Assembly (NCBI RefSeq): GCF_033115175.1
Contig: NC_084837.1
Span: forward strand, 88,238,966 to 88,302,965
Source: Lepus europaeus
Lineage: Eukaryota; Chordata; Mammalia; Lagomorpha; Leporidae
DNA length: 64,000 bases
Direction: 5' to 3'
The translations under genes were made by a program, and so were the position numbers. Positions 22,501-44,023 of the stretch are shown in pieces (position 1 is the first letter of the stretch; the number at the start of each line of letters is the position of its first letter). The notes under the pieces are model-generated. The model saw only the letters and a program-made list of their open reading frames with translations. It searched no databases and was not told where the DNA came from.

Positions 22501-22509
22501 TGTCCAACA

Positions 22510-23310: not shown

Positions 23311-24279
23311 AGAAGCATTTTTACATGGTGGACAATTGTGGCCACACCCCGCCCTCTGGGGTCTCCAGCGTGGACCTCCTGAGGGAGAAGGGGCCTCTGG
23401 CAGTGCTGGTCACCTTCTGGGCTTTCCTGTGCTCTGGCCTGCTGGCCGGCTCTGCGCTGCCTGCCTCTTTGATGCAGCTCCATGTTGGATCTTGTCCACA
23501 CCATCTGACACTTGCAAAGTAGCTTGCTACCCTGAGTGGGTGGGTGAGTGGGCACCCCTAGGCCTGCCCACTGCAGCATCAGGGTGGGGGAGGGGGCCAC
23601 GTGTCCCATCCCCGGTTGAGCTGCCGTCACTCACCTTCACCGGGTGCCCTCTAGTCACCTCCCCAGGTGAAGTGCCTCTGTTTCATTCCTCTGAACACAT
23701 GGCCATCACCTGTAGAGCTGTCCTGATTCCCTTGTGATTGCCCCAGCTAATAACCGGGGAGCCTGGCCTTCACCCCATCATAGTCTATAAAATGGTCATA
23801 GTAACGCCCCACGCCTTCCACCTGGAGTGAGATCAAAGGGACCCATGCAGGCCAAGCTGCTTTCCCAAGGCTGTGGTTGAGTGCCTGGAGGCAAACTGGG
23901 CCCCCTCTCCACCTAGGGTGTGTCAGCTCAGGAGGGGCTGCAGTTCTCAGATTGGAAACCTGCCCCAGGTGCCCGGCCCTGGCAGTTCTAAGCACTGCTC
24001 GGCCAGGGGCTGCAAAGGCTGTTTAATTAGGGCCCAGCGGTGCCTCCAAGTTCAGGATTGCTACCCATTTTACCCACATGGTTTGAATTTCTGCCAGTAT
24101 GAGACACATGCACGTCAGACCAGAGACGGCCTTTTTTAAGGGGGCAACGTTGGGCTGGGAGGGCTGCTGACTTATTCCCCGAAACTCAGCGTTTTTAGCA
24201 GCCCCATCCACACCCATGGGTGTGAAGAATCCCAAAGGCGGGCTAATCCCATCTGGTCGCCCTAACCCTTTCAACCCAA
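23311..24279. other. Upstream flank of the DIS3L-like gene, nothing recognised
   Basis: No SINE or exon. It may hold upstream regulatory sequence, but I see no specific site apart from the TATA-like palindrome at its end. Confidence 0.4.
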
Positions 24280-24293
24280 GCGTTTATAAACGC
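24280..24293 (+). promoter_or_regulatory. TATA-like box inside a 14-bp perfect palindrome
   Basis: GCGTTTATAAACGC is its own reverse complement, with TATAAA at 24285-24290. It lies about 200 bases before the chosen start, so initiation about 30 bases downstream would give a 5' UTR of roughly 170 bases containing the in-frame ATG at 24378. TATA boxes are unusual in CpG-island housekeeping promoters. Position and sequence are seen; promoter function is inferred. Confidence 0.45.
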
Positions 24294-24299
24294 GCTGCC

Positions 24300-25340
24300 C
24301 TCCACCTACTCCATCACTTCTGGACAACTTTTGAGAACTTTGCTTCCCGAGCTCCGAGATCCCACAGCAGCAGCAAGATGAGCGGCACAGAGGCTGGAAG
24401 ACGGCCGCGGCTCACCCACTCCGGAGAGGCCGGGACGGCGGGCTCGGGGTCCAGCTCGTCGGACTGCTGGAGAGCGGGCGAGAGCAACATGCTGGAGAAG
24501 ACGGAGCGGCTGGTCACTGTGAACGCCGTCTACCGCTGGCCGCTGCGGGTCGTGAGAGAACACTACCTGCGGCCCTGCGTGCCCTGCAGCAGCGCGCTGT
24601 GCTCCCAGCCCGAGCGCTGCCGCAACGGTCAGAGACGCTGCGGGGCCGGGCGGGCGGCGCCGGGAGGCCGCGCGGCGCGGGGCGGGCGGCGGGAGAGGCG
24701 CGGCCGCGGCTCCGAGGCGGGAGCGGCGCGGGCTCGGGCGCTCCGGACCGCTCGGCGCTGCGAGCCAGGCGCGCGCTCGTCGGCCGGGGCTCGGGGCGGG
24801 CGGCGCGGGCCTGCGGCGGCCAGGGCCGGAGCGGCCAGCCCCGCGCACGGGCTGAGGCGGCCTGCGGGCTCCGGCGCGGGCCGGGGCGCGGCAGAGGCTG
24901 GCGCCGCCCACTCGGCTGTGGGGGAGAGGCCGCCTCCCGGCCGGGCGCGCGTGCCGGGCAGCTGGTGTGGAGCCGTGCGCGCCAGACCTTCCCCTCCGGG
25001 GCTCTCCGCGGCGACGCCGGTCCCCGCCCCGCAGGGCACGGGGGGCGCAGCCGGGGCCCCTCCACGCAGCTCGGGCCAGGGCGGACAGCGCTGCGCGGCT
25101 CGTGGCTTGCACCGGGCAGCCCGCCCTGCCGGCCCTGGGCTTCCCTCCGAGCTGAGCTTGCGGGGCGTCCGCAGGTGTGCACGCTCGGACGTGGACAGCC
25201 GCCCACCCCGCGGAGCCCACATTTCTGGCAGCTTCGAGACACGATGAAGCGGCCCAGTGCGGCTGACCCCGGGCCTGTCCCGTTATCTACACAGTTCTCG
25301 GAAGTTGTCTTGCCCCTGGGGAGGGGCGAGGGTTAAATGC
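24300..25340 (+). promoter_or_regulatory. CpG-island promoter region of the DIS3L-like gene
   Basis: Strong rise in G+C and CpG density covering exon 1 and the first ~700 bases of intron 1, unlike anything else in the window. The composition keeps long frames open on both strands; these are not genes. CpG islands at 5' ends usually mark germline or broadly active promoters, so the paralogue probably has a live promoter. Confidence 0.8.
24378..24488 (+). other. In-frame upstream start: possible 37-residue N-terminal extension
   Basis: ATG at 24378 has A at -3 and is in frame with the ATG at 24489, with no stop between. Use of it would add a Gly/Ser-rich 37-residue leader absent from DIS3L. 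The start at 24489 also has A at -3, so leaky scanning could give both forms. Confidence 0.4.
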
Positions 25341-28300
25341 TCTCTCTCTTGTGCTTTGTGTTTCAGTGGGCAAACTCTTACCTGCGGGGGTGACCCACTA
25401 CATGGTCCCAGACAGCTCCGTTTTCCATTACTTTGACATCTTGGAAATGCCCGAATTGAAGGGAGTCATTTGGTTGCAGACGGTGACTGACGCTCTGCGT
25501 TCGGAAAGAGGGTGGAGGTATGTTTGTATTGTGTGGAAATGAGAAGGATCCTTAAGATAATGGTCAGTTTGTTAAAAGTATGCATTAGCTGGATTGTTTA
25601 CAGGCTTTTCCAGATAGAATATTTTAAAGTGAGTGTGAAGTTGATTTTATTCAGACACAAAGATGTAGATATTTTCTCATATCCAGGTTTAAATGCTGCT
25701 CCAGGCGTCATATTTCTGCTACTAAAATCAATGTGCTGTTCTATTCCCATTGCTAACACACTGCGAGCCTTTTCAACCTGTTTTCTAAAATATTTTTAAT
25801 ATTAAGGATTGCTTTTCAAGGCCAATTCCTGTGACATTCAAAGGCAAAGCATGGGTATTTAAATGTCTTTTCTCTTGAACATTTCAAAATGAGTGAACTT
25901 GATGAAAAAGGATTGGTTTTTCCACTGCTTAGTTCTGTCTCCCTTATACTAAATGTGAAAACAAGGGAGGAGCAGTTAGGAAAGCGGCTTCCAGGTGACA
26001 CCCTAGGCTTAGCACATAGTAAGCACCTCTTGAGCTCCTGTTCCGAGGCCTTAGGGCACACAGTCTTAGTCCCTCTTACTACAAACCTGTTGACTTCCAG
26101 GGATGAGATGAGAGGAGCAAGGTTGGGGCAGGTGTTTGCTGCTTGGGATGTTCTCACATATCAGAGTGCTTGGTTTGAGTCTGGCTCCTGCTGATTTGAG
26201 CCCTGGGAGGCTGCAGGAGGGGGCCCCTGCACCCAGATGGGAGATCCAGCTGAAACTTCTTTGGCCTGAGCAAGGCCTGGCCATTTTGACCATTTAGGGA
26301 GTAAACTGGTAGATGATAGATCATTTTGTCTCCTGCCTTTTTAAAAAAGACGTGGCATGTGATTGGGCCCGAATACAATTTTTTTGTCCTCCGCCGTCTG
26401 AAGCTATTGCTGGGTTCTGGGGAGACCTGTTCAAGGTGCTGGGACGCTCCTAACCTGCCATGCATGCAGGTTATTGAGCTCCATCAAGCGCACTGATCTG
26501 ACTAGAAAATACAGCTAGGGTGGCTGCACTCTTCAGTTACAACCGAGAGCCCACACCTGTCGCCCACAGAGGGACTTGCTGTTTGCTGCCTGTCCTATTT
26601 CTGTTCCAGGCCATTTATTAATCTGTTTTGCCTGGCTGATAGGTAGCTGATGCAAGAAGCCTGCATGTATGGGAGTGAACCTGTTTTGGTTTTTGTTGTG
26701 TGTTTTGCTAAGTGTCAGGCAGGGTGGTGGTGGCTCTGTGGTACCCGGGTAAGCTTTGATGCATCAGTTTCCGGAAGGCTGAACTTGAGATGCCTGGGGT
26801 CTAACGGGAAGGTGTGAAGCCAAAGCATGGCTGGGCTCTGAAGATGTCAGGTACCCACCTTAGCACTAACTGCCTTCACCTGCTCTGTACTAAGATGTCT
26901 TTATTTGAAAGTGACAGAGCTGGAGCTCCATGTCTCCCACAGGGGTGGAAGGCACCCAGGGACTTGAGCCATCACTTGGCTTCCTCCCAAGCCACATAAG
27001 CAGGGAACTGGATTGGGGCAGAGTAGTCGGGTCTTGAAGCAGCTCTCAAGATGGACATGTACCACAGCACTAACCCCTTGATCCCTTTAAAATAGGCAGA
27101 TGTTTTCTGTGATTCTATACAACCTTAACTACTAAAAAGCACCTTCTTAGAAACTGGCTCTGTGAGACTTCATCATTGATTTATGGCACAGGCTAGTGTG
27201 GCTGGGATTCTCTCTCCTTTCCTAGGGCTGCCAGCAAGAAGTAAATTGTTAATGCTTCCCAAGGTACAAAAATACAAGTGGCTATACGCTGCTGGAAGGG
27301 ACAGGTGGAGCTGGGCAGAAAAATCATACAAAAGCTACCACCCGGCTTCTGCTCGGCTTGGGTTGGCAAGATGGAGATGCGTGCCTGCTGTGCGTTGACT
27401 TGTCTCCCCCGTGGCACAGGTACTATAACAAGCTGCGGAGCCTCCTCAAGGACCCGAGCCGCGAGTGTGTACTCTTCGCAAACGAGTACCATGCTTCATG
27501 CTACCACGCTTGGGGAAAGCAAATGTTGAAGAAAGATTGGGCGAAAAGGTATGGTCATCTGCTGTGGTTTTCATGTGGGCATCTCTTGCTGCCTCATTGG
27601 AAGCTGATCTAAAACAGACCAGGAGTTTTTTAGGGGAACCATGATACTAAAAGCACGTGATGTTGGTAGTTTAGATATGTCATTTGAATATGTAATTGAA
27701 ATATTTTAGAAATCGGGATGAGGAAGATCTACTAGGTAGCCAGTGGGAGTTTGCCCCAGATCCTAACTGCAGGATAATGCAATGTTTGGGGCATGGGTGT
27801 GGGGACAAGGGGCCCTGCTTTGAAGCCAATAAGATAATCTCATTGTGTTGGGTATGAGTTCTAAAGTCCCAGCTAGACCCACTGAACTGAAACTGCTAGA
27901 TGACAATTCTGAAAGCTCTTGGAGAAAGTGCGGTGGCTTCATTGAGATCCATCCTAAGCAGCAGAGCCCAGCGCAAGCGCTTCGATAGGCAGTGTCTGGG
28001 TGGGAGCTATACCCAGAGATGGCGCTAGGACACGATGGCCAGCTGAGTGACACGAGGCCCAGCTGCCACTGCGGAGTGGCCTGAGATGCCATGCAGAATG
28101 TGCCTCCGAAGTCATCCCCGGTGCAGAGGCATTGGGCTCGGACTCCCAAAAGCTGGGACATTCCTAAGCGTTGTGGACTCTGTCTAGTGGCCCCTCATCA
28201 AGGTGAGCCCAGGGTACAGGTGCTAGGCACACCAAAAAAAAAAAAAAAAACCTTACCGTATAGAACATGTCATCTTTTCCTTGCACGACTGATCTGCTCT

Positions 28301-29028
28301 AGCTCTTAAACACGTCCGTTCTGCAAAGGCACCTAGGAATGGATCCATACTGGGTGCTGTTGCAGCCCCAGGTTTTCTCAGGGGACAAGACCTGAGAGGA
28401 AAAAGCATTTCTCTCAACAGGGACCCCTGAGTACCACAGAAGTGCTTATCCACGTTGGGCTCTCTTGTGCTTACAACCCAGTCTTGGAAGCACAGCCTGG
28501 GTCTGAGAACTGTGTTCAAGTTCAAGTACTTTGCAGCCGATTTCTGGGCATTTTAGATGGTTCCGTTTCAGACTGCATCCTGGTCTTCAGCTGTTTTCAG
28601 CCTTGTCTTGTTAGCCAAAGATTCACCTGTAAATCTTGTGGGCTTCCCCAGGCATCGTGTGGGGTGCTGTGTGCGAGCCCTCCAGTTAAAAGGTGCTAAA
28701 ATATGACAGACAGGGTGCTCAAGGAAGAAATGCAAATTGTGGTTCCTCTGTGTGTGTCTCAGAACCCGGGGCTTATCAATAATAGAAGCCCAAAGCTTTC
28801 TGGGATGAGGAGTGCACGAATGGTCTCAAGAGACCAGAGGACGGCAGATCGGTGAAATTCTGGCAGTGTGAGGGCTCCTGTGTGCTTTGTTCCAGGATTA
28901 TCTACGCCGCGGCTTTGTGGTATTATAAGCACTGCGGGGAGAAGATGCCCATCGTCATTGTGGCAGACGAAGATTCCATAAAGAGATTCAAAGTGAAGAG
29001 CGAAGGAGTATCTGTCATGACGTTCAAG
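24489..29028 (+). CDS. DIS3L: DIS3L-like exons 1-4: CR3 motif and PIN region
   Basis: Exon 1 carries the CR3 cysteine motif (C30, C33, C38, C44 in [12 protein letters not shown] and following), which in DIS3 proteins helps docking on the exosome core. Exons 2-4 encode the PIN fold. The first acidic position is kept (D62 in the HYMVPD motif), but the position matching DIS3 Asp146 is not acidic (region 140-150, [11 protein letters not shown]). DIS3L has the same loss, so endonuclease activity is unlikely. This N-terminal part is the least conserved of the protein. Confidence 0.88.
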
Positions 29029-32000
29029 GTATTTCCGGCTGTGGTGTACATGGCTGTGTGTTCACTTCCAGTGTTGCTCCTCGGAGTCTAGATCCCGTTG
29101 GCAACCCAGAAAAGAGAAAGTAGAGCTTGAAGCAGTTCCATCCTGCTAGGTAGAAACTTAATGAGACGCTCCGATCACTGTGGATTTACAGAAACCCTAG
29201 CTGGACTCTGAATTGTAGGTTCTCTGAGGGTTCCCAGGAGCATGTATTCCTAAAGATTTGCCAATGGGATTTTCGTGGCCTTGCTCTAAAGAAGTGTTCT
29301 GGCATGCCAGAGACTTCCAGGGGTGCTGGATATGAATAGCAGTGTCACTGGTGTTTTTCTGTGGCAGTATATCATGTCTTGTCCTGCAGAGGACAGTCGA
29401 GTCAAAAGTATTACATTTCCTTGCTTTTTGTGAGAATTAGTTTTCTTTGTAGTCCAGCAGTCTAGAACACTTCTCATTGTGTGTAGCATCTCCAACTGTG
29501 CCCCCCTCAAGGTGAGTGAGAGCAGGAAAACAGTTGAGTTTGGATGAAAGGGAAGGCCAGCATCTTTGGAGATGGAGAAGCACTGAGACAAGCTGGCCCA
29601 TAATGACAAGTTTGGTGCTGATAAGTGGCCGGTGACCATAGCATGGAGGCACTGAGTGAGCATAGACAAAACTTCTGAAAGGACCAAAGGAAGAACAGCA
29701 GTTACCACAGGATCCGGAAATGAATGGGGGAAATGCTGGTGTTGACACTGAGGACAACCTATTTGCTGTTCAATTCCAATACAGACGTGAGCTAAGACTC
29801 CAGGAGAGGATCAAGCCACCACTTGCAGGGCTGGCATCCCACATGGAAATGCCTGGCTGCTCTTCGTGGCTCTTGGATTCGGCCTGGCCCTGCCCTGGCT
29901 GTGGTCATTTGGGAAGTGAACCAGAGGATGCAAGATCTCGGAGTGCTCCTGTCACCCTGCCTTTCCAATCTTTTTCATTATTAGACAGGTGGAGTTAGAG
30001 GGAGACCGGTCTTCCTTCCGTTGGTTCACCCCCCAAATGGCCGCTATGGCCAGCGCTGCACCGATCCGAAGCCAGGAGCCAGGTGCTTCCCCCTGGTCTC
30101 CCATGCGCAGGTGCCCAGTCACTTGGGCCATCCTCCACTGCACTCCCGGGTCACAGCAGAGAGCTGGACTGGAAGAGAAGCAACCGGACTAGAACCTGGC
30201 ACCCATAGGGGATGCTGGCGCTGCAGGCGGAGGATTAACAAAGTGAGCCACGGTGCCGGCCCCTCAATCTTTAACACAGCATATAAAGAGGAGCTTTTGC
30301 CTCTGCCTTCTCTGTAGGCCATTGTGTGTAGCCATGAGGTCCATACAAAGTGCAATCGGAAAGACTTCAAGGTGCCAAGTCCGGGTCCCTACCCCCTGGG
30401 CACCTTCAAGGTGCCAAGTCCGGGTCCCTACCCCCTGGGCTTCCTCTGAGTCTCGGGCTTTAACAGGAAGGGAGAAAACCACTCAGTGGCAGCAGGAGGC
30501 TCAGGAGGGGACTGCTGTTGTCAGTCCTCACCATGCAGACGGCAGTGCCAGCTGGGGCTTGGATAGTGCCACCACACAGTTCTGTTCTGATCCTGTTTCT
30601 CCATGCCTTTGTACGACACAGGAGTATTTGAAAAAGTTCTATTCGGATCTGGAGGCTGCCCACAGCTCCTGTGACTTCACTGATGAAGCCCTGTATGAAG
30701 AAAAGCTGGAGCGCTTGGAAGCCTCAGGACTTAATTACAACCACTATCTCCCCCCGGACGTTCTAGAAGCTGGGCTACAGTCTGGCCGCTACGTGGAGGT
30801 GAGGGCTGCCATGAAGAGGCAACAGCTGTTTCCTTCCCCTCCTGGCGGCCTGAGGCTGCAAACCAGATGGGAACAGGCAAGCCAGGACAGTGGACGTGCA
30901 CACAGCCTTGGGCCTGTGTCCCTCGATGTTGGCTGTCCAGTTGGCGGCCACTCTGGAATGATGCCGTTCCGTTGTGTGGTGTCCTGAGCCTCAAGACCAG
31001 AGACCGAAGCAGTTTTGTACATGCCTCCTGTCACTGGCTTCGAGATAAGATTTGTTCAGGGCTCCTGACCACGTGGATAGGTGTTAGTGACGACTGTTGT
31101 TCATAGCACTTGGAAGGAAAATGGGCAGAAAAACTGTTGACCACATTGATTTTTTTTCTGGTTTTAGGGAATATTGTGTGTGAATAGACAAACAAAAGCG
31201 GAAGCATTTGTCCGCGTGCAGGACACAGAGCAGAGTGAAGAAGGTACAGTATATAAGCCTCACCTACATTTCCACCTGACTTCACAGCACACAACAAGGA
31301 AGCAAAGGTGTTACTGACACCCCAATCTCATGGTAGCAGTGAGGGGGTGTGGAGAAGGGTTCCCTACATTGTCACTTCATTTTTATAAACTTAAGGTCTC
31401 AGAACCAGTAAGCTGGGCTTGGATCCAAGGCTCTGTGGCTGTGGTTTAAAAACATTGCTCTGTCCTGCCTCAGTGTGGTCTGTCGGCTCCCTGGGCTTTC
31501 GAAAGGAATGCAAATGGGGGGAGAAAGCCAGGTAAATGAGCTGTCCTGAGATGGAGTGTAGTTCTTGGTTCATACTGACCTCTGGGTGGAGAAAGGAAAA
31601 GCCTGGAGAGGGCATGAGCAGGAATGGGTGGGAAGAGGAGCAAGAGGGACAGGAGGCGGCCCTGGGGAGAGCGTGTGCACAGGGCCTCCAGCCCCAGCCT
31701 GCAGAAGCACACAAGTGTGGCTCTGCCTTCGGAGGGCAAGGCGGTGAACAGGAGGACTCGGGCCTCCCTGGAGTGGAAGCCCCCTTGACGTCGTGATTTC
31801 TCTGCTGCCCCAAACACTAGATTATGAAATCCTAATCAACGGGATGAATCCCCGGAACCGCGCGCTCCACGGAGACCGGGTAGCCGTGAAGCTGTTCCCT
31901 GAATCCCTCTGGAATAGGAGAACGGCCACGGGTCGCGAGGCCGGCGAGTATATGCCCACAGGTGAGCCAGCGGATGCCACCCTGGCATCCAGCCTTCTTC

Positions 32001-35000
32001 CAGAATTGGGTATTTCTCAGCAATCCAGGAATAGGGCAATTTCATTTAAAGTGGCAGACAAGTTGTGATGTATGGACATCCTGCAGAATGGCTGCATCGA
32101 GGTAACCAGCATGGGACACATGGTTACCGCTTTCCCCAAACAAGTTCTCATTGCATTCCAGCCTGTGCTCTGTCATTATTCAAAGCAGCTGCCACCTCCA
32201 GCCCTTTTTGCATACCACACCGCAATACCTGGGGTCAATATAGGCTCAGATTCCAGCTCCCTTCTAATACTTGGGAGGCAGTGGTGATGGCCCAGGTAGG
32301 GTTCCTGCCACCCGCATAGGAGACCTGGAGTGAGATGCTGGCTCCTTGATGTAGCCTCTAGCCTTGTTCCTAGCCTTGTGGGTATTTAGGGAGTGAACTC
32401 GCAGGTGGATGTGAACTCATTCTCTCTGCCTCTCAATAGAATAAGCATATTTAAATAGGTAATTGATTATTTTGCAATGAAAAGTAATAGTTTTTGTATG
32501 CCAAGAACTCCATCAAGGTCTCTTACAGGGGTTGCAGGGGCCCAAACACTTGGGTCATCCTCTGCTGCTTTTCCTGGACCGTTAGCAGGGAGCTGAATCA
32601 GCAGCCAGGGCATGAACAGGCAACCATGTGGGATGCCTGCTTGGCAGGCCGTGGCTTCACCCAGCTATACCACAGTGCTGGCCCCAACAAGTTTATTTCC
32701 TTAATAAAACAAGGGTGAGAATGATTTGATTTTCCAAGATACTGAAACCCAAAATCAATGAGGTAATGGCAAAAGAAAAAGCAGGATTCCAAATGTCACC
32801 TCCGAACCCATAGAAAAACGCTACCAAAAGATTATCCATGTTAAAAAAAAAAAAAAAATCGGGCATCTCTAGAAAGTCTACATGTTTGAAATGGCTAAGA
32901 AGGCAAATCTTCAAAGATTCCCTTGAATTAAGTGCTTGGAAAAATGGGACAGGGACAGTTAGATGACGGCTAGCTGGCTAACCCTTGTGATTTGTTTTCC
33001 ACAGGACATGTGGTGGGCATTACTCAGAAACACAAGCGCGATTATATAGTAACCTTTCCATCAAAGGAGGATATCCAGTATTACAGCAGGAAAACGAAGA
33101 AATACGTTGCTGTGCCATGGGACTGTAGGATCCCCAGAATTCAGATCCACAGGAAACAGGCTGAAAAGTACCAGGTAAAGGACACTGCACCATGGCTGCC
33201 CTGCTTCTGTCTTGGCCAGCTTTTGGATCAGTGCCAGAAAGCACTGTTAATTGCTTTGCAAATAAATTGTGGGTGGCATCTGGCATTCCAAGGTGCTGTT
33301 AAATCCTAAATACATAGGTGCCATCTAGTAAGTGGTCTAAGGCTAACAAATGAAGGCTTGAGCACGTCCTAGAAAGCGCTCTGTAGGACAGCCAGAGAGA
33401 ATACATTGTCCTGCTGACCAATGGAGAAGCTTCCAACAGCTGCACTTGGCCAACACGAACGCGCTTTCTTCCAGCAAGCAAGGTAGAAATACAAGCCCTG
33501 TGCCTCGTAGGGATGATGTAGAAGCTCTTCAAAGAATCGATTTTCCGTGAAGGAATATAGGTGGGAGGGAAGACATGTTGTCGCCAAGAGACTAGGCACT
33601 GTCCAGCATCACCTGCCTCCAGCTATGCAGCCCACTAGCCTGGTCATTGTCCCTCGGACACCCTAAGCCTTGTTACAGGCTCCCAGGGGCCTGTTTCAAT
33701 GGCTTGCTGAAACTGCTAGACAGTGAGGGTCCTGTTGACACTGATACCCGGACTTCGAAGTAGCTCCTACAATCTGAGACCTAGGTTCCGGAACTTACCC
33801 TGAACCCTGCACCACTGGGTTCACGGCTTGTGTTGCAAGTGTGAGCCAGCTGGCTGTTCACACGTGGCACATTACAGCCTCCTTATTTGATGCCGAAGAA
33901 ACGCCTCCCACTGCAAAAGCGCTGGGCCAGGCCATTCCATACCACCTGGCAAGTCCCAGAATCAAACATGCCACCCTGCAGACTGGCCACCCTCTATAGA
34001 ACTGTCTCTACCCTCTCGTTAGCGAATGCTTTCAATAACCCACGGAACCCTGGAGGCGAGGCTAATGCTTTATGTACCTTCTCCTGCAGTGTTGCAAAGC
34101 AATCGTCCACATTGATTCCTGGGACTTGGGTTCGAGGTATCCGGACGGACACGTCGTAGGGACACTGGGAACAAGTAGAGACCTGGAAGGGGAAATGAAG
34201 TCTCTGCTCGTGGAGCACGACATCTCCGAGCGGCCCTTCTCTGAAGCCCAGGTCAGATTCCCGGAGGCCTCTGGTCTAATGGCAGACACGTTATGCACAC
34301 AGGGAAAGATCTCTAGACTCCAGCGACTCGCTGGGAAGCCACAGATAACCCTCAACCAGACCCAAGTCAGTTTCCAGTGGAGCTCTCAAGTCTGTAGATT
34401 CTACAACTATGTTTCAAAGTGGCAGGTCGGTGTCTCCTGGTCAGGATAGGTCCATCCGGCAAGTCGAGGATAGCTGGTTGTATCCCCAGCAGAGCTCCGT
34501 CTCTACCCATCATTCAACCCCAGCAACAGGGAGCAGAGTCCAGGATGCCTGTACGTCTGAGCCTTCGGTCTGAGAGCAATGTTCGTGACGCAGCTTTCCT
34601 AGACTTTCCAGAAAACGGAAAGCCCACAAACGCAACACATTGGCTTTTCCATCACTTCCACGTCATTAGAAACAGATAATAGCTATTCTCTTGAATGTGC
34701 TATTCGCTGATAGGTTTCTTTTGCTTAATTATTACATATTGGCAGAGCCTATGTGGTTTTAACAGTTAATGGTAAACTACTGTATATTGATGTGCCCCTG
34801 TGTGCTCAGCCATTTGGCTGTTGGCCTGTTATTTTTATTCAGTATTATAAAAAAGCTACTTCACATATACAGCAACATTACTTTTTTAATGTGGTCAATC
34901 CTTCCCTTGGTAATCTCACGTTAAGGATTACCTTTTCCAAGTCAAAGGGGACATTGAAGTAGCTTTGTTACTTGTTGGCAGACTGTTTCCCAGCTTGCAC

Positions 35001-38000
35001 TGCCATTAGGAGTATGAGCGTCTTGGCAGAACCAGAGCTATCCTCATCAAATATTTGAGAATGCTTTACGTCGTTAAATGTTCATGTTTTACAGTAGTTC
35101 CTGGCCATTATTTTGTTGACTTGTCTGGCAGCTCTTGGAGAAAATGATTCCATAAAGTGGGTTTAGAGGTCACAGGACGAGAATTCTCTCTTCCCTGTTG
35201 GCCTCAACTCACTGCACTGCAAGCTGATGGTCAAGACAGGGACAGGGAGAGGAAGGACCATACTTTTTGGTCCTGTTTTAATCATCCCTGGCATCTTTTT
35301 ATTAAAGATTTATTATTTGAAAGTCAGTTACACAGAGAAGAGAGGCAGAGAGAGCGAGGTCTTCCATCCAATGGTTCACTCCCCAGACAGCCACAACGGC
35401 TGGAGCTGTGCCGATCCAAAGCCAGGAGTCAGGAACTTTTTCCGGGTCTCCCACGTGGGTGCAGGGGCCCAAGGACTGTCAGCAGAGCAGAGAGCTGGAT
35501 CAGAAGAGGAGCAGCTAAGACCCATATGGGATGCCGGCACTTCAGGCCAGGGTGTGAACCTGCTGCGCCACAGTGCCAGCTTCCCTGGCATCATTTTTTA
35601 ATATATGCGATGCCTTAGATGTTGTCCCCCATGGTTTGACCAGAACAGGCCAAAGACATTGAAACGTGGATCATTGTTGAAAGGGGTACATGCGCTCTTA
35701 AATTTGCCACTCGTGCTGGCTCCAGTCTGCTTACAAGGCTGGTGGGAGGTCTCCCGTCAAACCCCCAGGGCACCCAGGGCAGGAGGCACAGCACCTGACC
35801 CATCGGAGGCCAGCACAGGATGACGCAGAATGGAACTGAGCCCCTGAGGGTCAGAGGAGGCAAATGGCTGAGAAGGTGGCCTCTCTTGCAGATGGGCGAG
35901 TTGCCGGTGAACACCCCAGAGGAGCCTTGGAGCGTGGACCCCGAAGAACAAGACCGCAGAGATCTAAGGCAAACGAATCTCGTGTTCACTATTGACCCAA
36001 GAGGGTGTGAGGATGTGGACGACGCGCTGTCCGTGCGCACTCTGAGCAGCGGCAACCTGGAGCTGGGCGTTCACATAGCAGATGTAACCCACTTTGTGAA
36101 GCCGAAATCTTGCCTGGATAACGAAGCTAGGGCTAGGTAAGGCCGTGTGCAAGCCTTGGAATGCCTGCGACTTTCAGATGAATCTGTTGGTGCCCTGCTG
36201 ATGGTTTCGTCCAGGAACCCCCACCCCACACACCCACACACCAACTAGAGTTCAGTGACTGGCTCAGCTTGCCTTTCCTGTCTCCCACAAACGGGTCACG
36301 GGCTAAGTTGTCACATAGGAATGTGTTATTTGATGTCACGCATGGGGTCATCACACTCCAATTTGGCTTCCACGAGCAAGATTGATGTCAGTTTGCCTTC
36401 CGGAAGAATGTGCCCCGAGCAGTGTCAGAGCAAAGTGGGTCCATGGGGATCGTTTTAGCACTTGATGAAGAGGCAAACGGCCTCGGATTCTGGGCAGTGA
36501 TTTCTGGCTGTCTCCTCCCTGTGGGACCCTGCAGCCCACGGGCCTATGACTGCTGACAGTCTCACTGCCTATGTGTTTCCAGGGCCACAACGTACTACCT
36601 GCCCGACCGGCGCTATGACATGCTGCCCTCCGTCCTTAGCTCCAATGTGTGCTCTTTGCTGCGCGGCGTTGACAGGTGAGCTCACGACTGTAGCCCTTGG
36701 TTCTACTGTGCTCTCCTCCCCAGCCACCCTGTGCTGGTCTGTGCCCGACCCGAACGCCTGATCTTGTTCCCCTAGCCTCCCTGCCCCTCCTCACCGCTTG
36801 CTTCTGCTCTCCCTCTATCTGTACCTCTATCTGTATTTTGAAGATTTAGTTGAAAGGCAGAGTTAGACAGTGAATGGCAGGGGCCCAAGCACTTGGGCCA
36901 GGATCTGCTACTTTGCTAAGCTCATTAGCAGGAAGCTGGATCAAAAGAGGAGCAGCCAGGACTTTAACCTTTCTAGAGACAATACTGCACACACATGATC
37001 TCCTTTCTTACACACCTAGCGTTTTTTTAAATGGAGCAGTTCATGTGTCTTGGAGATAATTCCACATTAAGAACTGGAAAGTCGGGTATTTGCCCATTGT
37101 CCTATTACAAGCAAAGCTGCGCTGAATTTTGCATGTTCAGAAGGACAGGGGGGAATCTCAGGAGGTGGGATCTGAGCTGGAGCCCATGCGTCAGTGTGAA
37201 TAGGATCGAATTGCCTTCAGGGATCACACCAGGCACATGCTCACCAGCAGTGCAGGATGCCTCATTTCCCATAGGCTTTCACACAATACCTTGTCTGCTT
37301 CTCTCTGCCCACTTGATAGAAGGGTTGGAACTACATCCTTGACACTGCCACATGGTACTTTGACCCACTGTGCCACAGCACTGGCCCTGGCACTTGGGTC
37401 AACATCCAACACCAGTCCTGGCTGCTCCACTTCCATTCCACGGTCCTGCTAAGGAGCCTGGGGATGCAGCAGAAGATGGCCACTGCCACCCGTGGTGGAG
37501 ACCTGATGGGATTTCCTAGCCCCTGGCTTTACGCCTGCCCCAGTTGTGGTTATTGTGGGCATCTGGCATGAACCAGTGTCGGGGCGGTATGCCTCATATT
37601 TCTGTCTAGTTGGAGCAGAAACCTGTAGAAATGTCATTTCAGTCAAATCACATTGAAGGTTCAATTCTCTTGCTGCAAGGGGTGAAGGTGTGGATAGTGA
37701 CATTGTTGATGTTACTGCTTTTGTAGATACGCTATGAGTGTCATCTGGGAACTGCATAGGACCACCTACGAGATTAAGAGTGTGTGGTATGGAAGGTCAA
37801 TTATCCATTCCACATACCAACTCTCCTACGAAGCAGCTCAGGAGCTCCTCGATGGGAACTTGGGCATCACAAATGACATGAAGGAATTCCAAGATATGGA
37901 CAAAAAGGAGAAAGAAGACAGGCTGCAGGAACTCACATGGGCGATTGAAAAGTTGGCAGACATAGCCAGCCACTTCCGGGCGCAGCGAGGTCTCGATGGT

Positions 38001-39996
38001 GCCTTAGATCTGGACGGCATTGAAATCGGTGTGCTGTTCGATGACGAGAGGAACATTCTCGACCTCATCCCCCGGCAGCAACGTACAGTCCATCGGATGG
38101 TGGCGGAGTGTATGATACTCGCCAACCACTGGGTGGCCAGGAAAATCTACGAAAGCTTCCCCAGGCAGGCCCTGCTGCGCCGGCACCCGCCTCCATGCCA
38201 GAACCTCTTCTCGGAGCTCAAGCAGAGCGCCCAGGCCGGAGGGTTCTACATTGATACTAGGTAGGAGCGCCAGGCTGGGCTGCACAGTCACTAGCTAGCA
38301 GAGCTACAAGGGTTCGTCACCCGTGGGTTCCCTCCCCAGCTGGGCCTTGATCCAAAGCCAGGAGCTTATCTGGGTCTCCCACATGGGGGTAGGGACCAAA
38401 GACCTCGGGCTATCTGCCAGTGCTTTCCCCAGGCCATGAGCAGGGAGCTGGATCACAAGCCGTCTGGGATGCCAGTATCAGGTGGAGGCTTAGCCTGTTG
38501 GGCCTCAATGCCTGTTCCCAGACCTACTTAACAAACTCGGGATTGTTTGTGCATCTTAGGAGGTGTTGTGCTGGGGCAATAATTCGATAAAAAATTTAGA
38601 AGGCAGAGTTAGAGAGGCAGAGGCAGAGAGGTCTTCCACCTGCTGGTTCATTCCCCAATTGGTGGCAATGGCTGGAGCTGAGCCAATCAAGAGCTTTCTC
38701 TGGGTCTGCCTCATGGATGGCATCCTCCACTGCTTTCCCAGGCCACAGCGGAGAGCTGGATCAGAAGCAGAGCAGCCAGGACTCGAACCAGCACCCGTGT
38801 GGGGTGCCAGCCGCAGCAGGGACAATCTTAACTCGGGGGACACTCAAGTGTAGCATTACTTCTGGAGCTCTAGGCTGCTGTAGTAGAAGAGAAGAGCTGC
38901 TTCTGAGATGTGGTCGTGAATGAAACACGTCTCCCTGCTGGCAGAGGAAGTTACTTAGAGGGGACGGGAGGCTTTTCCGAACGCATTGCCTTGTCCGTGC
39001 CTGGAGTAAAACTGGGCTCCTCTGTTCTGTCAGCTCTAACAGGTCCCTGGCGCTTTCCCTGGATAACGCGCACGACGTTTCGGACCCCATAGTCAACAAG
39101 CTGCTGCGGAACATGGCGACGCTGGCCATGTCCAACGCACTCTACTTCTCGACAGGCTCCTGCAGGGAGCACGAGTTCCACCATTATGGTGAGTGACAAA
39201 GGGTCCTGGGTCGCCATAGCCTGGAGCAAGTTGTTTCCAAATCTGATCTTCAATCATTTGGTTTCTCTTCACAGCACTTGGCCTGGACAAATATACTCAC
39301 TTTACCTCACCAATAAGGAGATATGCCGATATCATAGTACATCGATTACTGAGTGCAGCTATCGCAAGAGACAAACCGGAAATGGAGCTGAATTTGTTAA
39401 GTGAACGAAGCCTCGAAGAGCTGTGTGATCATATCAACGAACGACACAGGGTAGGAGGTTTTTAAATTCTTAGCCATTGCCTCTTGGTGAGCTGTGCTGG
39501 GTACTCAACTTTAGTGCCATGTTAGTCCAGCAAAGGATCACGTGAGTCCAGAAGGATCTGACCCATGCTCCCAATACATTCACAAATGTAAGAGGGGAAA
39601 GTTGCATGGACTTGGACTTCAGCCTAAATTACACGTCCTCAAAAGGTGGGAAGGTTCACATCACAGAGACAGGAAGACCTCCCCACTGAGGTTCTGGACA
39701 GCGCGAATGAGAGGATACAGCACTGCTGTTGGACCATGCTCTGTAAAATCCGCATGGTTGTTCCTGCACAGCCCATCCCAGCAGGAAAGTTTAGAGAAGC
39801 TTCTCGCGGAAGAACTCGAGTTTTAGACTTGGCATGATGATGGAGCCTGGAGAAGTTCCTGGAAATGGCCTTCCCAGGTCTAGAGGTGCGCAGACAGAAC
39901 ACCGGCAACGATCCTGGGTGTTCCCAGGACAGCAGAGAGCAGTGGCTGTGGGAATCGCTGTCTGCTGTAACCTTGTGGAGGGGATCTCTTTTCTTT

Positions 39997-40030
<34 letters not shown>

Positions 40031-41885
40031 ACAGGCAGAGTGGACAGGGAGAGAGAGACAGAGAGAAAGGTCTTCCTTTTGCCGTTGGTTGGCGCACCGC
40101 GCTGATCCGATGGCAGGAGCCAGGTGCTTCTCCTGGTCTCCCATGGGGTGCAGGGCCCAAGCACTTGGGCCATCCTCCACTGCACTCCCTGGCCACAGCA
40201 GAGAGCTGGCCTGGAAGAGGGACAACCGGGACAGGATCGGTGCCCTGACCGGGACTAGAACCCGGTGTGCCGGCGCCGCAAGGCGGAGGATTAGCCTAGT
40301 GAGCCGCGGCGCCGGCCGAGGGGATCTCTGACCAGGCCCTGGGCCTGTGGCTTCTTACAGGCTGCGAAACTGTGCCAAAGGCAGGCAATGGAACTCTTCC
40401 AGTGCCGTTTCTTCCGAGACAAAGATGCAGACAGAGACGAGCGCTGCGTCGCCGACGGGATCATCTATGGCTTCCGGGACACCGCTGTGCAGCTCTACAT
40501 CCCAAGGTATGTCCCATCTGCTGCAGTAGGGAGTAAGAAAGCCTGCCTCAGCTGCAGAGAGCACGCACAGCACATCAGACGAAATTATTATCCACTGCTT
40601 CTGGAGGTTCCCTATACACATATTGTAAGGATGCCTAAATATAAAGGCAAAGTGGGAGATGGGAGAACAGTGCACCTTCTAACTCAGTGAGTTATCTGAA
40701 AGATGGTGGATGCGAAGTAGATCCTCCATCGACTCATTCCCACCCAAAATGGCCACAGTTGGCCAGGATCTTGGAACGCCGCTTGATGTATGGAGCAGTA
40801 GTCACATTCACCTCCTCCCCAGGCACATCAGCAGGGAAGTGGACTACCTGGGACTCGAACCAGCACATCCAATATGGGATGCAGGCAAACACTTGTTTTG
40901 CCTTTTTTTTTTTTTTTTTTTGGCAGGCAGAGTGGACAGTGAGAGACGGGTCTTCCTTTGCTGTTGGTTCACCCTCCAATGGCGCCGCAGCCAGCCCGCT
41001 GTGGCTGGTGCACCGCGCTGATCCGAAGGCAGGAGCCAGGTGCTTCCCCTGGTCTCCCATGCGGGTGCAGGGCCCAAGCACTTGGGCCATCCTCCACTGC
41101 ACCCCCGGGCCATAGCAGAGAGCCGGCCTGGAAGAGGGGCAACCGGGACAGAATCCGGCACCCTGACCGAGACTAGAACCCGATGTGCCGGTGCCGCAAA
41201 GCGGAGGATTAGCCTGTTGAGGCACAGCGCCGGCCTGTTTTGCTTTCACTACAAAAGGAACACTGTGTAGATAAGTGTAAAATCTGCTGTAAAAAACTAC
41301 TGTCTTATCTGTCAATGATTCAGGTATGGGATTAAAGGAAGCGCACATCTGAAAACCAAAGATGGCTGTGTCCTCCATTTGGGGCCCAATGGTGAAAACC
41401 TTGGCAGCTGGGCCCCAGGAGCACCCAGGCGATGGTACAAGAGGACAGACCGTGTCACATCCAGCGGGCAAGGCGTCGCTTTCCGGATGTTCGAGCACGT
41501 TACGGTAAGGCTGTGCGGGTGCCTTGTGTGTGTCCTTTCCAATGCAAAGTAGAGAATGCAATTCGGGAATACATCTCTCCTCTTCCTGTGACAGGTGAAA
41601 ATATCTGCACAAGTAAAACCGTATCATCCCAATGACCTACACCTGGAAATCATAAGCAAGAAAGCCTCCGTGGACCCAGAGGCAAGGCATACTCCCCAAA
41701 GCTCCCCATCACCCACGAGAGAGTTAGCGGGGGGAAACACTCAGTGTGCCGAAGACGGCAAAGAAAATCTCCCTGAGGAATACCGGCAGTTTCGGCAGAC
41801 AGAGGGAGAGAGCCTCTACACTCTCCTGGAAGAGATGAAGAATCGAGCGATCCAGGACCTTTCGAGCCATCTTGGAATTCTATGA
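24489..41885 (+). CDS. DIS3L: DIS3L-like RNB exoribonuclease (diverged paralogue), 17 coding exons
   Basis: Predicted 3'-5' exoribonuclease of the RNase II/RNB family, DIS3L type; in human DIS3L this is the catalytic subunit of the cytoplasmic RNA exosome. Exons: 24489-24627, 25367-25517, 27420-27548, 28896-29028, 30622-30798, 31168-31243, 31821-31961, 33005-33174, 34090-34251, 35892-36136, 36583-36675, 37727-38260, 39034-39188, 39275-39450, 40361-40506, 41324-41504, 41595-41885. All 16 introns are GT-AG, phases agree, and the spliced frame is open for 1032 codons plus TGA (human DIS3L: 1054). Order: Cys-rich CR3 and PIN region (about 1-190), two cold-shock-like domains (about 205-425), RNB (about 430-800), S1 (about 830-950). 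Metal-binding Asps are D461, D467, D469 and D470. Start chosen because it aligns with the human DIS3L start; an in-frame ATG lies 111 bases upstream. Divergence from remembered human and mouse DIS3L (roughly a third of residues) is far above orthologue level. A fast-evolving orthologue is the alternative reading. Confidence 0.93.
26110..26350 (+). mobile_element. Diverged SINE, sense (intron 2)
   Basis: Recognisable from 'ggcccctgcacccagatggga' and 'cattttgaccatttagggag'. Confidence 0.6.
26892..27085 (-). mobile_element. SINE fragment, antisense (intron 2)
   Basis: Central part missing; head 'accacagcactaacccc'. Confidence 0.55.
27549..28895. other. Intron 3, no element recognised
   Basis: The only simple feature is an A-run near 28234-28250. 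No SINE in 1.3 kb, unusual for this window. Confidence 0.4.
29805..29970 (+). mobile_element. SINE fragment, sense (intron 4)
   Basis: Diverged; interrupted in its tail by the next element. Confidence 0.55.
29985..30262 (-). mobile_element. C-type SINE, antisense (intron 4)
   Basis: Same younger subfamily as 3244-3570 ('ccgatccgaagccaggagcc'). Confidence 0.82.
30365..30440 (+). repeat. 39-bp tandem duplication in intron 4
   Basis: Two adjacent copies starting 'cttcaaggtgccaagtccgg' at 30365 and 30404, identical over about 37 bases, in the intron between exons 4 and 5. Confidence 0.85.
30622..34251 (+). CDS. DIS3L: DIS3L-like exons 5-9: cold-shock/OB domains
   Basis: Exons 5-9 encode residues about 185-426 and correspond to CSD1 and CSD2, the RNA-path OB folds before RNB. 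Recognisable family segments are [15 protein letters not shown] across the exon 5/6 junction, [13 protein letters not shown] in exon 7, [13 protein letters not shown] in exon 8 and [14 protein letters not shown] in exon 9. The exon 6/7 junction restores an Asp codon and 7/8 a Gly codon, which confirms the phases. The linker around residues 270-310 is shorter than in human DIS3L and accounts for part of the length difference. Confidence 0.88.
32190..32460 (+). mobile_element. Diverged SINE, sense (intron 7)
   Basis: Partial match through 'tttagggagtgaactcgcag' and a short A-rich tail. Confidence 0.5.
32500..32690 (-). mobile_element. SINE fragment, antisense (intron 7)
   Basis: Lacks the tail half; head 'ccacagtgctggcccc' intact. 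Confidence 0.65.
35300..35588 (-). mobile_element. C-type SINE, antisense (intron 9)
   Basis: Near-complete, tail at 35300-35340. The rest of intron 9 (34252-35299, 35589-35891) has no recognised element. Confidence 0.82.
35892..39450 (+). CDS. DIS3L: DIS3L-like exons 10-14: catalytic RNB domain
   Basis: Exon 10 contains the active-site strand [15 protein letters not shown] with D461, D467, D469 and D470; D470 matches human DIS3L Asp486. Exon 11 encodes [18 protein letters not shown] and exon 12 (534 bases, the largest) the central helices with [14 protein letters not shown]. Exon 14 carries the RNB signature [18 protein letters not shown] (777-794). The exon 12/13 junction makes Ser717 where DIS3L has Arg in its DTRSNK motif. 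This is the best conserved part of the protein and argues for retained nuclease activity. Confidence 0.92.
36838..36965 (-). mobile_element. SINE fragment, antisense (intron 11)
   Basis: Short internally deleted copy ('gcaggggcccaagcacttggg'). Confidence 0.6.
37340..37600 (+). mobile_element. SINE fragments (intron 11)
   Basis: A short antisense head (37340-37385) next to a sense body ('ctgctccacttccattccac'). Confidence 0.5.
38335..38515 (-). mobile_element. SINE fragment, antisense (intron 12)
   Basis: Diverged; head 'gggcctcaatgcctgttccc'. Confidence 0.6.
38590..38815 (-). mobile_element. C-type SINE, antisense (intron 12)
   Basis: Complete tail, head deleted after the box-B region at about 38785. 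Confidence 0.7.
39990..40317 (-). mobile_element. Young C-type SINE, antisense, just upstream of exon 15
   Basis: Long T-run at 39996-40029, head ending 'gccgcggcgccggcc', and a perfect 12-base target-site duplication GAGGGGATCTCT (39978-39989 and 40318-40329). It ends 43 bases before exon 15. Confidence 0.95.
40361..41885 (+). CDS. DIS3L: DIS3L-like exons 15-17: S1 domain and C-terminus
   Basis: Exons 15-16 encode the S1 RNA-binding domain ([12 protein letters not shown], then [15 protein letters not shown] across the junction). Exon 17 encodes a polar, Pro/Ser-rich tail ending in [19 protein letters not shown], which matches the DIS3L-specific C-terminal motif ([15 protein letters not shown] in human, as remembered). 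This tail separates DIS3L-type proteins from DIS3 and DIS3L2. The final intron is only 90 bases. The stop is TGA at 41883-41885. Confidence 0.9.
40700..40890 (-). mobile_element. SINE fragment, antisense (intron 15)
   Basis: Older truncated copy ('gggactcgaaccagcacatcc'). Confidence 0.55.
40902..41235 (-). mobile_element. Young C-type SINE, antisense (intron 15)
   Basis: Long T-run and an 8-base target-site duplication TGTTTTGC (40894-40901 and 41236-41243). Confidence 0.9.
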
Positions 41886-42133
41886 AACTTTCCGTGTCAG
41901 TCACGATGGACTATTTTTACATTTACTGCACAAATCCTGTGATTTGTACAGGATAAACAGTAGTACATATTGTACCGTTATAATTGTGTAGCTACCTCCT
42001 GTTGCTATGGAGCAAGTGCTGCATCTGCTTAAGATGCCCTGGGACAGTGATGAATTCTGTGTGCCCTCATCTTCCCAGCAGATTGTGAACCACAGTGTAT
42101 GTGACGTCTTGATTGGGCATATTTACCATAAAT

Positions 42134-42139
42134 AATAAA
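42134..42139 (+). promoter_or_regulatory. Polyadenylation signal of the DIS3L-like gene
   Basis: AATAAA 249 bases after the stop codon, followed about 15-25 bases later by a GT-rich stretch (aatgtgtcc). This gives a short 3' UTR of about 270 bases ending just before the duplication boundary. Confidence 0.7.
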
Positions 42140-42357
42140 TGTATTTCTTACAATGTGTCCTCAGCTTCCTTTTCTAAGGGCACAATCTTTGGGAATACAA
42201 TTTTTTTAAAGATGTTTTCCAATGGATGGAAGATATTCCTCTCGTTTATAACTGTCTCATGTTGAAGATTGATTTGAGGGGACAGATGGGACAGTGCCCT
42301 GATAGGAGCACTAGAAGTAGTGCTACTTTTGTCTTCTACTAGCAGACCTGATCTAAG

Positions 42358-42643
42358 ATCTACTCATTTAATTGAGGCAGAGCCACAGACAGGGGAAGGC
42401 CAAGAGGTCTTCCATCTGCTGGTTCACTCCCCAAATGCCCACGATGGCTGGGGCTGGGCCAGGTGCAACCCAGGAATCTGGAACTCCATCCACGTCTCCA
42501 ACAGCATGGCAGGGGCCCAAGCACTTGGGCCATCTTCTGCCGCTTAGCATCTTAGGATCTGAAGTGGGTCAGGACTCGAGCCGACGCCCATATGGAATGC
42601 AAGTGCCACAGGCAGAAGCTTAAACTAGTATGCCACAGAGTCC
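42358..42643 (-). mobile_element. C-type SINE, antisense (copy B)
   Basis: Matches 360-663; its start was removed by the B deletion at about 42353. Confidence 0.72.
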
Positions 42644-42898
42644 AGAGAGAAAGGGCTCAGCCAACTGTCAGGTGACTCCCCAAACAGCTGCAACAACCAG
42701 TCCTGGGCCAGGTCAAATCCAGGAACCAGGAACCAGGAACTCCACCTGGGTCTCCTACGCAGGTGCAGGGGCTCAAGTCTTTGGGCCACCTTTCACCGCT
42801 TTCCCAGGCGCATTAGAGGGAGCTGGATCTGAAGTGGAGCCGCTGGGACTTGAACCAGTGCTCTGATGTGGGATGCAGACGTGAGAACTGCAGTCTGG
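42644..42898 (-). mobile_element. C-type SINE, antisense (copy B)
   Basis: Matches 690-977 without its tail. Confidence 0.68.
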
Positions 42899-43268
42899 GG
42901 CCAGCGCCATGGCACAGTAGGTTGATCCTCCACCTGCGGTGCCAGCATCCCATATGGGCCCTGGTTCTAGTCCAGGCTGCTCCTCTTCCCATCCAGCTCT
43001 GCTACGGTCTGGGATAGCAGTGGACTTGCGTGGGAGACCGGGAAGTTGCTCCTGGCCTGGCCCTGGCGGCCATCTGTGGGGTGATCCAGTGGATGACTCC
43101 CCAAAAACTAAAAGCTTGCTATTGAAACTGGCCGGTTCAAGTCCCAGCTGTTCCACTTCTGACCCAGCTCCCGGCTAATGTGCCTAGGTAAGCAGGAGAA
43201 GATGGCCCAATTACTTGGGCAGACCTAGAGCTGGATTTTCAACTCACTGGGGCTGGGTAAAGCGTCAA
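42899..43268 (+). mobile_element. C-type SINE, sense, rearranged (copy B)
   Basis: Matches 978-1345. Confidence 0.65.
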
Positions 43269-43870: not shown

Positions 43871-44023
43871 CTGAAAGAGACACCAAACCATTATCACTGA
43901 TTTTAATTACATGATTCTGTCTCACCTCATGTACACAAATCTCTTCAGAAACCTAATTTTGATCACTGTCTTAGAAATATAAACCTCTTCATATATGGAG
44001 GAAGTCCACTGAGATCACAAAGA

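What the first reader, a model, noticed from the sequence alone, without database searches (positions are those of the whole stretch)
24489..41885. A diverged but intact DIS3L paralogue: possibly an undescribed fourth DIS3-family exonuclease in lagomorphs
Seen: 17 exons with canonical splice sites, compatible phases and an uninterrupted 1032-codon frame, keeping the CR3 cysteines, the four RNB aspartates (D461, D467, D469, D470), the [12 protein letters not shown] motif and the DIS3L-specific C-terminal motif. Known: mammals are described with DIS3, DIS3L and DIS3L2, and DIS3L orthologues are highly conserved (human and mouse about 90% as I remember them). Inference: divergence of roughly a third, highest in the PIN region and lowest in RNB, fits an intron-bearing paralogue that evolved fast but kept catalysis.
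Basis: partly seen in the sequence, partly recalled or inferred. Interest (0 to 1): 0.92.

Follow-up and report, generated by a model that had tools for sequence, protein, structure and literature searches.

The report
Eightfold tandem array of diverged DIS3L
The gene is probably not an extra fourth family member but one of eight side-by-side copies of DIS3L, the RNA-degrading enzyme of the cytoplasmic exosome, sitting at DIS3L's usual chromosomal place in a rabbit-like mammal in whose genome assembly no ordinary, conserved DIS3L was found.

Summary
In detail: 17 exons, canonical splice sites, 1032 open codons, 56.8% identical to human DIS3L. The interpretation changes. The window lies in a tandem array on contig C13: eight copies of the gene, starts 39.5-46.7 kb apart, all with 17 exons; six fully open, two with a stop only within the last 13 codons. 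TIPIN lies about 5 kb beyond the last copy, and both repeat units visible in the window carry a copy of TIPIN's last exon, so this is the DIS3L-TIPIN locus. The copies are under purifying selection (mean dN/dS 0.27; RNB 0.10); retrocopies record spliced germline transcripts. Most likely this is DIS3L itself, amplified and evolving unusually fast, still an exosome exonuclease. Open: protein trees prefer a split older than the human-mouse one (with two recalled sequences), so an old hidden paralogue that replaced DIS3L is not excluded. Present expression was not testable.

The parts
24489..41885 (+). DIS3L-like gene, copy 7 of 8 (coding part, 17 exons, 1032 codons)
   Evidence: human DIS3L full-length match; copy number
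24489..24627 (+). exon 1 (CR3 cysteines)
25367..25517 (+). exon 2
27420..27548 (+). exon 3 (PIN part)
28896..29028 (+). exon 4
30622..30798 (+). exon 5
31168..31243 (+). exon 6
31821..31961 (+). exon 7
33005..33174 (+). exon 8
34090..34251 (+). exon 9
35892..36136 (+). exon 10 (RNB start, catalytic aspartates D461, D467, D469, D470)
36583..36675 (+). exon 11
37727..38260 (+). exon 12 (centre of RNB)
39034..39188 (+). exon 13
39275..39450 (+). exon 14
40361..40506 (+). exon 15
41324..41504 (+). exon 16
41595..41885 (+). exon 17 with the DIS3L-type C-terminal motif
24285..24290 (+). TATAAA, present in all 8 copies; the C5 retrocopy's 5' end lies, by eye, about 27 bp downstream (its blastn match begins at 24329)
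24378..24488 (+). in-frame upstream ATG and 37 open codons, present in all 8 copies (possible longer N-terminus)
24401..25200 (.). CpG island over exon 1 and intron 1 (CpG o/e 0.85-1.19 in 200-bp steps; measured in the window copy only)
42134..42139 (+). poly(A) signal AATAAA; matches of retrocopies C5 and C17 both end at about 42153
1..22030 (.). left copy of the tandem repeat, matching 42257-64000 (1.7% substitutions overall; 0.05-0.45% in 16-22 kb, 3.7% in 10-12 kb)
42257..64000 (.). right copy of the same stretch
5936..48250 (.). one repeat unit as read from the right edge of the array (homology to the window stops at 5935/48250, inside TIPIN)
   Evidence: boundary inferred
4580..4819 (-). 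fragment of the last exon of TIPIN carried by the unit
46886..47125 (-). second copy of the TIPIN last-exon fragment

Best explanation
This is copy 7 of an eight-copy tandem array that occupies the DIS3L-TIPIN locus of a lagomorph-like mammal (lagomorph from C-type SINEs, recalled). The array is most likely DIS3L itself: the ancestral gene diverged quickly along this lineage (57% identity to human is shown; that four retrocopies record intermediate stages is inferred from their shared residues), and a roughly 42-kb segment reaching from the 5' flank of DIS3L into TIPIN was duplicated repeatedly (copies shown, process inferred). Every copy keeps a TATAAA, 17 exons and a poly(A) signal (shown, 8 of 8); a CpG island was measured in the window copy. 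The proteins should act as the 3'-5' exonuclease of the cytoplasmic exosome: CR3 and PIN dock to the barrel, RNB digests the RNA fed by the SKI helicase, and the C-terminal tail binds beside RRP45 (inferred from conserved motifs and the human structure). With no other DIS3L found in the assembly, the copies would have to supply that function (inferred).
For: Eight intron-bearing copies, all 17 exons and all splice sites, 6 of 8 fully open. TIPIN about 5 kb downstream, its last exon copied into both units visible in the window. No other DIS3L: the matches of PF00773 (48), PF17849 (11) and human DIS3L (57; 44 of 155 candidates scored; best exon identity 75%, in a retrocopy, 72% in the array) fall on the array, DIS3, DIS3L2 or retrocopies; human exons 12 and 10 alone score 93.7 and 65.9 bits. 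Purifying selection: mean pairwise dN/dS 0.27 over 28 pairs, RNB 0.10; sites shared by DIS3 and DIS3L changed in 62/329 against 258/489 elsewhere, P=3e-23; 10 indel events against human leave the frame open. Spliced retrocopies with matching 3' ends; C5 has a target-site duplication.
Against: Trees put the gene outside human+mouse(+Xenopus) DIS3L. With retrocopies and DIS3 as outgroup, lagomorph+mouse is rejected at 0.05 in 4 of 5 models (AU 0.016-0.056); without DIS3 in 0 of 5 (0.096-0.148); mouse and Xenopus rows are recalled. PIN D136 differs from human DIS3L and agrees with DIS3. No transcript data. Only one assembly seen; the left neighbour gene was not reached. The retrocopy-branch control of the branch-wise dN/dS gave 0.37-0.63 instead of 1, so that comparison (gene branch 0.36-0.41) is weak.
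Confidence: 0.68

Rival explanations
1. Hidden paralogue: an old tandem duplicate of DIS3L at the same locus survived here, while the ordinary DIS3L was lost in this lineage; the surviving copy was amplified later.
For: Best trees (LG+G4 and other models, not the failed C20 run) place the gene outside tetrapod DIS3L, also with four retrocopies breaking the long branch; with those and DIS3, lagomorph+mouse is rejected at 0.05 in 4 of 5 models. Human-branch length 0.17-0.25 with tool-derived letters only. Shares with DIS3 the PIN residue D136 (DIS3 D146) where human DIS3L has K.
Against: Homoplasy control: the gene matches DIS3 at 32 of 160 of its private changes, Xenopus DIS3L (recalled) at 7 of 29, so there is no excess of shared old states. 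A sister position to human+mouse is not rejected (AU 0.077-0.203), and without DIS3 lagomorph+mouse is not rejected in any of 5 models. No relic of an ordinary DIS3L in the window outside the exons, nor in two 10-kb flanks. No such gene is recalled from other mammals (not searched here).
Confidence: 0.2
2. One reading: a fourth DIS3-family gene coexisting with an ordinary, conserved DIS3L.
For: Divergence and intactness.
Against: Three whole-assembly searches found no ordinary DIS3L and the array sits beside TIPIN.
Confidence: 0.04
3. The array is dead or dying (pseudogenes), or an assembly artefact of duplicated haplotypes.
For: Two of eight copies have a stop within the last 13 codons; dN/dS is relaxed in CR3+PIN (0.45) and S1 plus C-terminus (0.44); unit identity is mosaic.
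Against: 8 of 8 keep every splice site and the catalytic residues checked; dN/dS 0.27, RNB 0.10. Eight copies with 0.35-1.93% intron divergence are too many for two haplotypes.
Confidence: 0.06

Closest known systems
DIS3L (DIS3L1), catalytic subunit of the mammalian cytoplasmic exosome
   Same: Full-length alignment, CR3 cysteines, four RNB aspartates, C-terminal motif, TIPIN downstream on the other strand (human order recalled), PIN lacking the E97 residue.
   Different: Eight tandem copies (one in human, recalled); 56.8% identity to human, whereas mouse-human is 91.7% by a recalled mouse sequence; D at the PIN position D146, which human DIS3L lacks; Pfam CSD1, S1 and CSD models match human DIS3L but not this protein at E 0.001.
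DIS3 (RRP44)
   Same: Domain order; three of four PIN acidic positions.
   Different: 38.8% identity; E97 replaced by A; DIS3 itself is present elsewhere in the assembly, on C8.
DIS3L2
   Same: RNB nuclease of the same family.
   Different: DIS3L2 lacks CR3 and PIN (PMC10240344, passages); it is present on C1.

Membership tests
DIS3L | End-to-end homology including the C-terminal domain that binds EXO9 beside RRP45 | tested here: met
   Residues 1-1031 align to the whole 1054-residue human protein; the C-terminal motif is complete in 6 copies and cut by a stop in 2; role of the domain from PMC11540850 (passages)
DIS3L | CR3 cysteines | tested here: met
   C30, C33, C38, C44 shared with human and kept in 8 of 8 copies
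DIS3L | Catalytic RNB aspartates | tested here: met
   D461, D467, D469, D470 in 8 of 8 copies
DIS3L | PIN domain lacking both E97 and D146 of DIS3 | tested here: inconclusive
   E97 position is A89 (met), D146 position is D136 (not met), in 8 of 8 copies; definition from PMC10240344 (passages)
DIS3L | Position next to TIPIN/MAP2K1 | tested here: met
   TIPIN about 5 kb downstream; human DIS3L-TIPIN order recalled, DIS3L-MAP2K1 region from PMC4820539 (passages); left neighbour and MAP2K1/SNAPC5 not tested (searches unanswered)
DIS3L | Phylogenetic placement inside mammalian DIS3L | tested here: inconclusive
   Best trees place it outside; AU for lagomorph+mouse 0.026-0.26 without retrocopies, 0.016-0.148 with them, two rows recalled
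DIS3L | Exonuclease activity and binding to the exosome | not testable with these tools
   needs protein
DIS3 (RRP44) | PIN with D69, E97, D146, D177 | tested here: not met
   E97 position is A89
DIS3L2 | No CR3 and no PIN | tested here: not met
   both regions present
Processed pseudogene | No introns, disrupted frame | tested here: not met
   16 introns and open frame; the four retrocopies do show this state

The most novel reading that the evidence does not exclude
An old DIS3L paralogue, with a PIN domain that kept or regained three of the four endonuclease residues, replaced the standard DIS3L in this mammal and was amplified eightfold, so that its cytoplasmic exosome runs on a different and multi-copy nuclease from that of other mammals.
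Probability: 0.2. Interest if true: 0.85.

Novelty: new variant of a known kind. Interest (0 to 1): 0.64.

Why it matters
DIS3L is, as far as I recall, a single-copy and slowly evolving part of a core RNA-decay machine in human and mouse. A mammal whose only detectable DIS3L is 43% diverged from human and present in eight copies would show that this part can change quickly, offer natural variants for mapping which surfaces the SKI-exosome-ribosome assembly needs, and raise the question of what drives it (dosage, germline use, or conflict with viruses or LINE-1; none tested here). The four retrocopies give a series of intermediate sequences, ordered by shared residues but not dated.

Tried and rejected
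Scans of viral contigs and genome contigs gave no vertebrate relative: 115 pattern matches with no relative, and 94 with one bacterial RNB gene. Rfam at gathering threshold: 0 matches. Nine ORFs outside the gene: one weak DnaJ match only; the rest of the unit was not scanned for domains. LG+C20 trees did not converge sensibly (a branch of 9.99) and were set aside; they did not separate the placements. Idea of a recent lagomorph-only paralogue beside DIS3L: rejected. Idea of a sex-linked ampliconic gene: not tested. Structure prediction was not run, since the spliced protein cannot be read from one frame of the window. Literature: DIS3L alone, 124 papers, 20 listed; DIS3L+Oryctolagus, 0 papers; any two of DIS3L/lagomorph/rabbit/hare, 20 of 6,660 listed, none of the 20 holding DIS3L; DIS3L or duplication terms, 10 of 5,968 listed, none of the 10 holding DIS3L. 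So within this library and these capped listings I saw no report of the array; that is not proof that none is in print. Of the unit outside the genes I fetched only the parts flanking each gene and two 10-kb flanks of the array.
Full report
Observation. The exon model in the finding is correct: 17 exons between 24489 and 41885, GT/AG at all 16 introns, compatible phases, 3099 nt and no internal stop. PDB sequence search matches human DIS3L (9G8M/9G8N chain M) over its whole length at 1284 bits, far ahead of DIS3 at 494 bits and DIS3L2 at 325 bits. Identity to human DIS3L is 584 of 1029 aligned residues, 56.8%: RNB 70%, CR3 54%, CSD1 53%, CSD2 52%, PIN 50%, S1 region 48%, C-terminus 41%. Pfam finds RNB (322.8 bits), CSD2 (60.7 bits) and a sub-cut-off OB match; the CSD1, S1 and CSD models that match human DIS3L at E 0.001 do not match here.

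The window is inside a tandem repeat. A self-comparison shows 1-22030 repeated as 42257-64000 at an offset near 41.9 kb. Substitution divergence along the repeat, in 2-kb steps, is 1.0-3.7% from 1 to 16 kb but 0.05-0.45% from 16 to 22 kb, which looks like recent sequence exchange between units (inference).

Genome-wide view. Once the genome tool answered, the window was placed at C13:88238966-88302965 of a 2.93-Gb assembly in 649 contigs, and the RNB family (PF00773) gave 48 matches: eight repeats of the same exon set on C13 between 88.01 and 88.32 Mb, plus places on C1, C5, C8, C10, C13 (75.03 Mb) and C17. I fetched the seven other copies and mapped the exons: 8 of 8 have all 17 exons and canonical splice sites; six are open to the normal stop; copy 1 has a stop at codon 1020 and copy 4 at codon 1025; the only length changes are two missing codons in copy 3 and one in copy 4. 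Gene starts are 39.5-46.7 kb apart. All eight keep TATAAA 194-205 bp upstream of the ATG, an in-frame upstream ATG at -111 with an open frame, and AATAAA 248-256 nt after the stop.

It is the DIS3L locus. The TIPIN domain (PF07962) has one match in the assembly (11 of 11 candidates scored), at C13:88334310 on the minus strand, 11.8 kb beyond the end of copy 8; an open stretch that is the last TIPIN exon lies about 5 kb beyond copy 8 (L030). PDB search names both peptides TIMELESS-interacting protein. The repeat unit ends inside TIPIN: apart from SINE-size matches, homology to the window stops at 88328878, and the two units visible in the window each carry the TIPIN last exon, at 4580-4819 and 46886-47125 on the minus strand, 95-96% identical in protein to the real one. 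That human DIS3L is followed by TIPIN is recalled; that a chromosome 15 region spans DIS3L and MAP2K1 is in PMC4820539 (passages). The left neighbour was not reached, and searches for SNAPC5 and MEGF11-type domains did not complete.

No other DIS3L. The matches of PF00773 (48), PF17849 (11) and the whole human DIS3L protein (57; 44 of 155 candidates scored) fall on the array, on C8, on C1, or on four intronless copies. The PF17849 match on C8 is DIS3 (96% over 49 and 83% over 58 residues of human DIS3) and the one on C1 is DIS3L2; the PF00773 matches nearby on those contigs, whose exon layout differs from DIS3L, are taken to be the same two genes (inference). Exons 12 and 10 of human DIS3L score 93.7 and 65.9 bits by themselves, so an ordinary gene should not have been missed; a gap or a withheld stretch remains possible.

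Selection. Over the 28 pairs of copies mean dN is 0.0077 and dS 0.0283, ratio 0.27 (NG86). By region the ratio is 0.10 in RNB, 0.27 in 201-447, 0.45 in CR3+PIN (where dS is low, 0.016, so the ratio is noisy) and 0.44 in 799-1015; introns differ by 1.55% on average, so measured against introns the overall figure is nearer 0.5. Of 55 variable protein columns (gaps and the two stops included) 7 lie in RNB, and none at the 16 residues checked, which include the CR3 cysteines, PIN acids and RNB aspartates. On the long divergence from human, residues that DIS3 and DIS3L share changed at 62 of 329, others at 258 of 489 (P=3e-23), and the 10 indel events of the protein alignment leave the frame open. 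One of the 62 is the D486N mutation engineered into the PDB entry (PMC11540850, passages), which inflates that count by one.

Retrocopies as fossils. The intronless copies at C17:52.84, C5:25.73, C13:75.03 and C10:100.45 Mb are decayed retrocopies with 2 to 24 stops over the parts read. C5 has a 15-bp direct repeat at both ends, as expected of a target-site duplication, and an A-rich tail; its blastn match begins at 24329 in window terms and, by eye, reaches back to about 24312, 27 bp after the start of TATAAA. The matches of C5 and C17 both end at about 42153, 14 bp after AATAAA; C17 consists of two pieces head to head with an A-run at its end. In the coding part no insertion of 10 nt or more sits at an exon junction; 14, 7, 15 and 16 of 16 junctions are covered in C5, C17, C13 and C10. 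So spliced transcripts with these ends existed in the germline: this is evidence of past, not present, expression. At sites where human, mouse and Xenopus DIS3L agree and the gene differs (mouse and Xenopus recalled), retrocopies carry the gene's state against the human state at 22:45 (C10), 63:57 (C13), 138:34 (C5) and 83:20 (C17), with 55, 79, 34 and 20 showing a third residue, counting only residues read alike from both queries. With one query alone the ratios shift with the query, most for C10 (47:52 and 35:77) and C13 (76:59 and 65:73). I read this as stepwise change of one gene lineage. On branches polarised with retrocopies the gene's dN/dS is 0.36-0.41; the retrocopy branches give 0.37-0.63 rather than 1, so this control is not clean.

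Age and orthology. With tool-derived letters alone (human DIS3L, DIS3, the gene) the human branch is 0.22-0.25 and the gene's 0.34-0.43 substitutions per site; with retrocopies the human branch is 0.17-0.19. With recalled mouse and Xenopus rows the best tree puts the gene outside tetrapod DIS3L. For lagomorph+mouse, AU is 0.026 (LG+G4, few replicates) to 0.26 without retrocopies. With retrocopies and DIS3 it is 0.016-0.056, below 0.05 in 4 of 5 models; with retrocopies but without DIS3 it is 0.096-0.148, in none of 5 below 0.05; a sister position to human+mouse is not rejected with DIS3 (0.077-0.203). Against an old split: at the gene's private changes it matches DIS3 in 32 of 160, no more than Xenopus DIS3L at its own (7 of 29). 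Locus position argues for orthology, the trees for something older; long-branch attraction to a distant outgroup could explain the trees. I hold 'DIS3L itself' at 0.68 and 'old hidden paralogue that replaced it' at 0.2.

How it probably works. Motifs say exosome exonuclease: CR3 cysteines, all four RNB aspartates and the C-terminal domain that in the human structure inserts between an RNase PH domain and the RRP45 tail (PMC11540850, passages). The PIN domain is probably structural, as in human DIS3L, because the E97 position is alanine; but unlike human DIS3L, which lacks E97 and D146 (PMC10240344, passages), all eight copies have aspartate (D136) at the D146 position. What drove divergence and amplification is unknown; links between the exosome and LINE-1 control are discussed in PMC10351740 (passages), but nothing here tests that. 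Species: lagomorph by recalled C-type SINEs only.

Noticed in passing
window exons 2-17 against introns 2-16: CpG observed/expected is 0.78 in coding exons but 0.32 in introns and 0.32 in 1-16000, and 0.80 across codon boundaries; it seems high for gene-body exons (expectation recalled) and is unexplained.
   Followed up: partly
window 14001-22030 against about 55940-64000: The two repeat units are nearly identical here (0.05-1% substitutions) but 1.6-3.7% different further left, as if a recent exchange had homogenised the stretch upstream of the gene.
   Followed up: partly
window 22830-23171 (-): Open stretch resembling DNAJC19/TIM14 (name recalled; DnaJ domain at 22 bits, below cut-off), probably a processed pseudogene.
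   Followed up: partly
window 24378-24488: An in-frame upstream ATG gives 37 more residues and is open in 8 of 8 copies; the true start codon is uncertain.
   Followed up: partly
all copies, residue 136: PIN residue equivalent to DIS3 D146 is aspartate here but lysine in human DIS3L; the C13 and C5 retrocopies have D, C10 has K, C17 does not cover it.
   Followed up: yes
L026 (C17:52.84 Mb): Retrocopy in two pieces head to head, as twin priming would give.
   Followed up: partly
L024 (C13:75.03 Mb): This fetched stretch holds 269 N, either an assembly gap or a withheld stretch.
   Followed up: no
window 46094-46593: Minisatellite-like stretch with repeats at offsets of 49 and 106 bp, lying where the two units' alignments break.
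   Followed up: no
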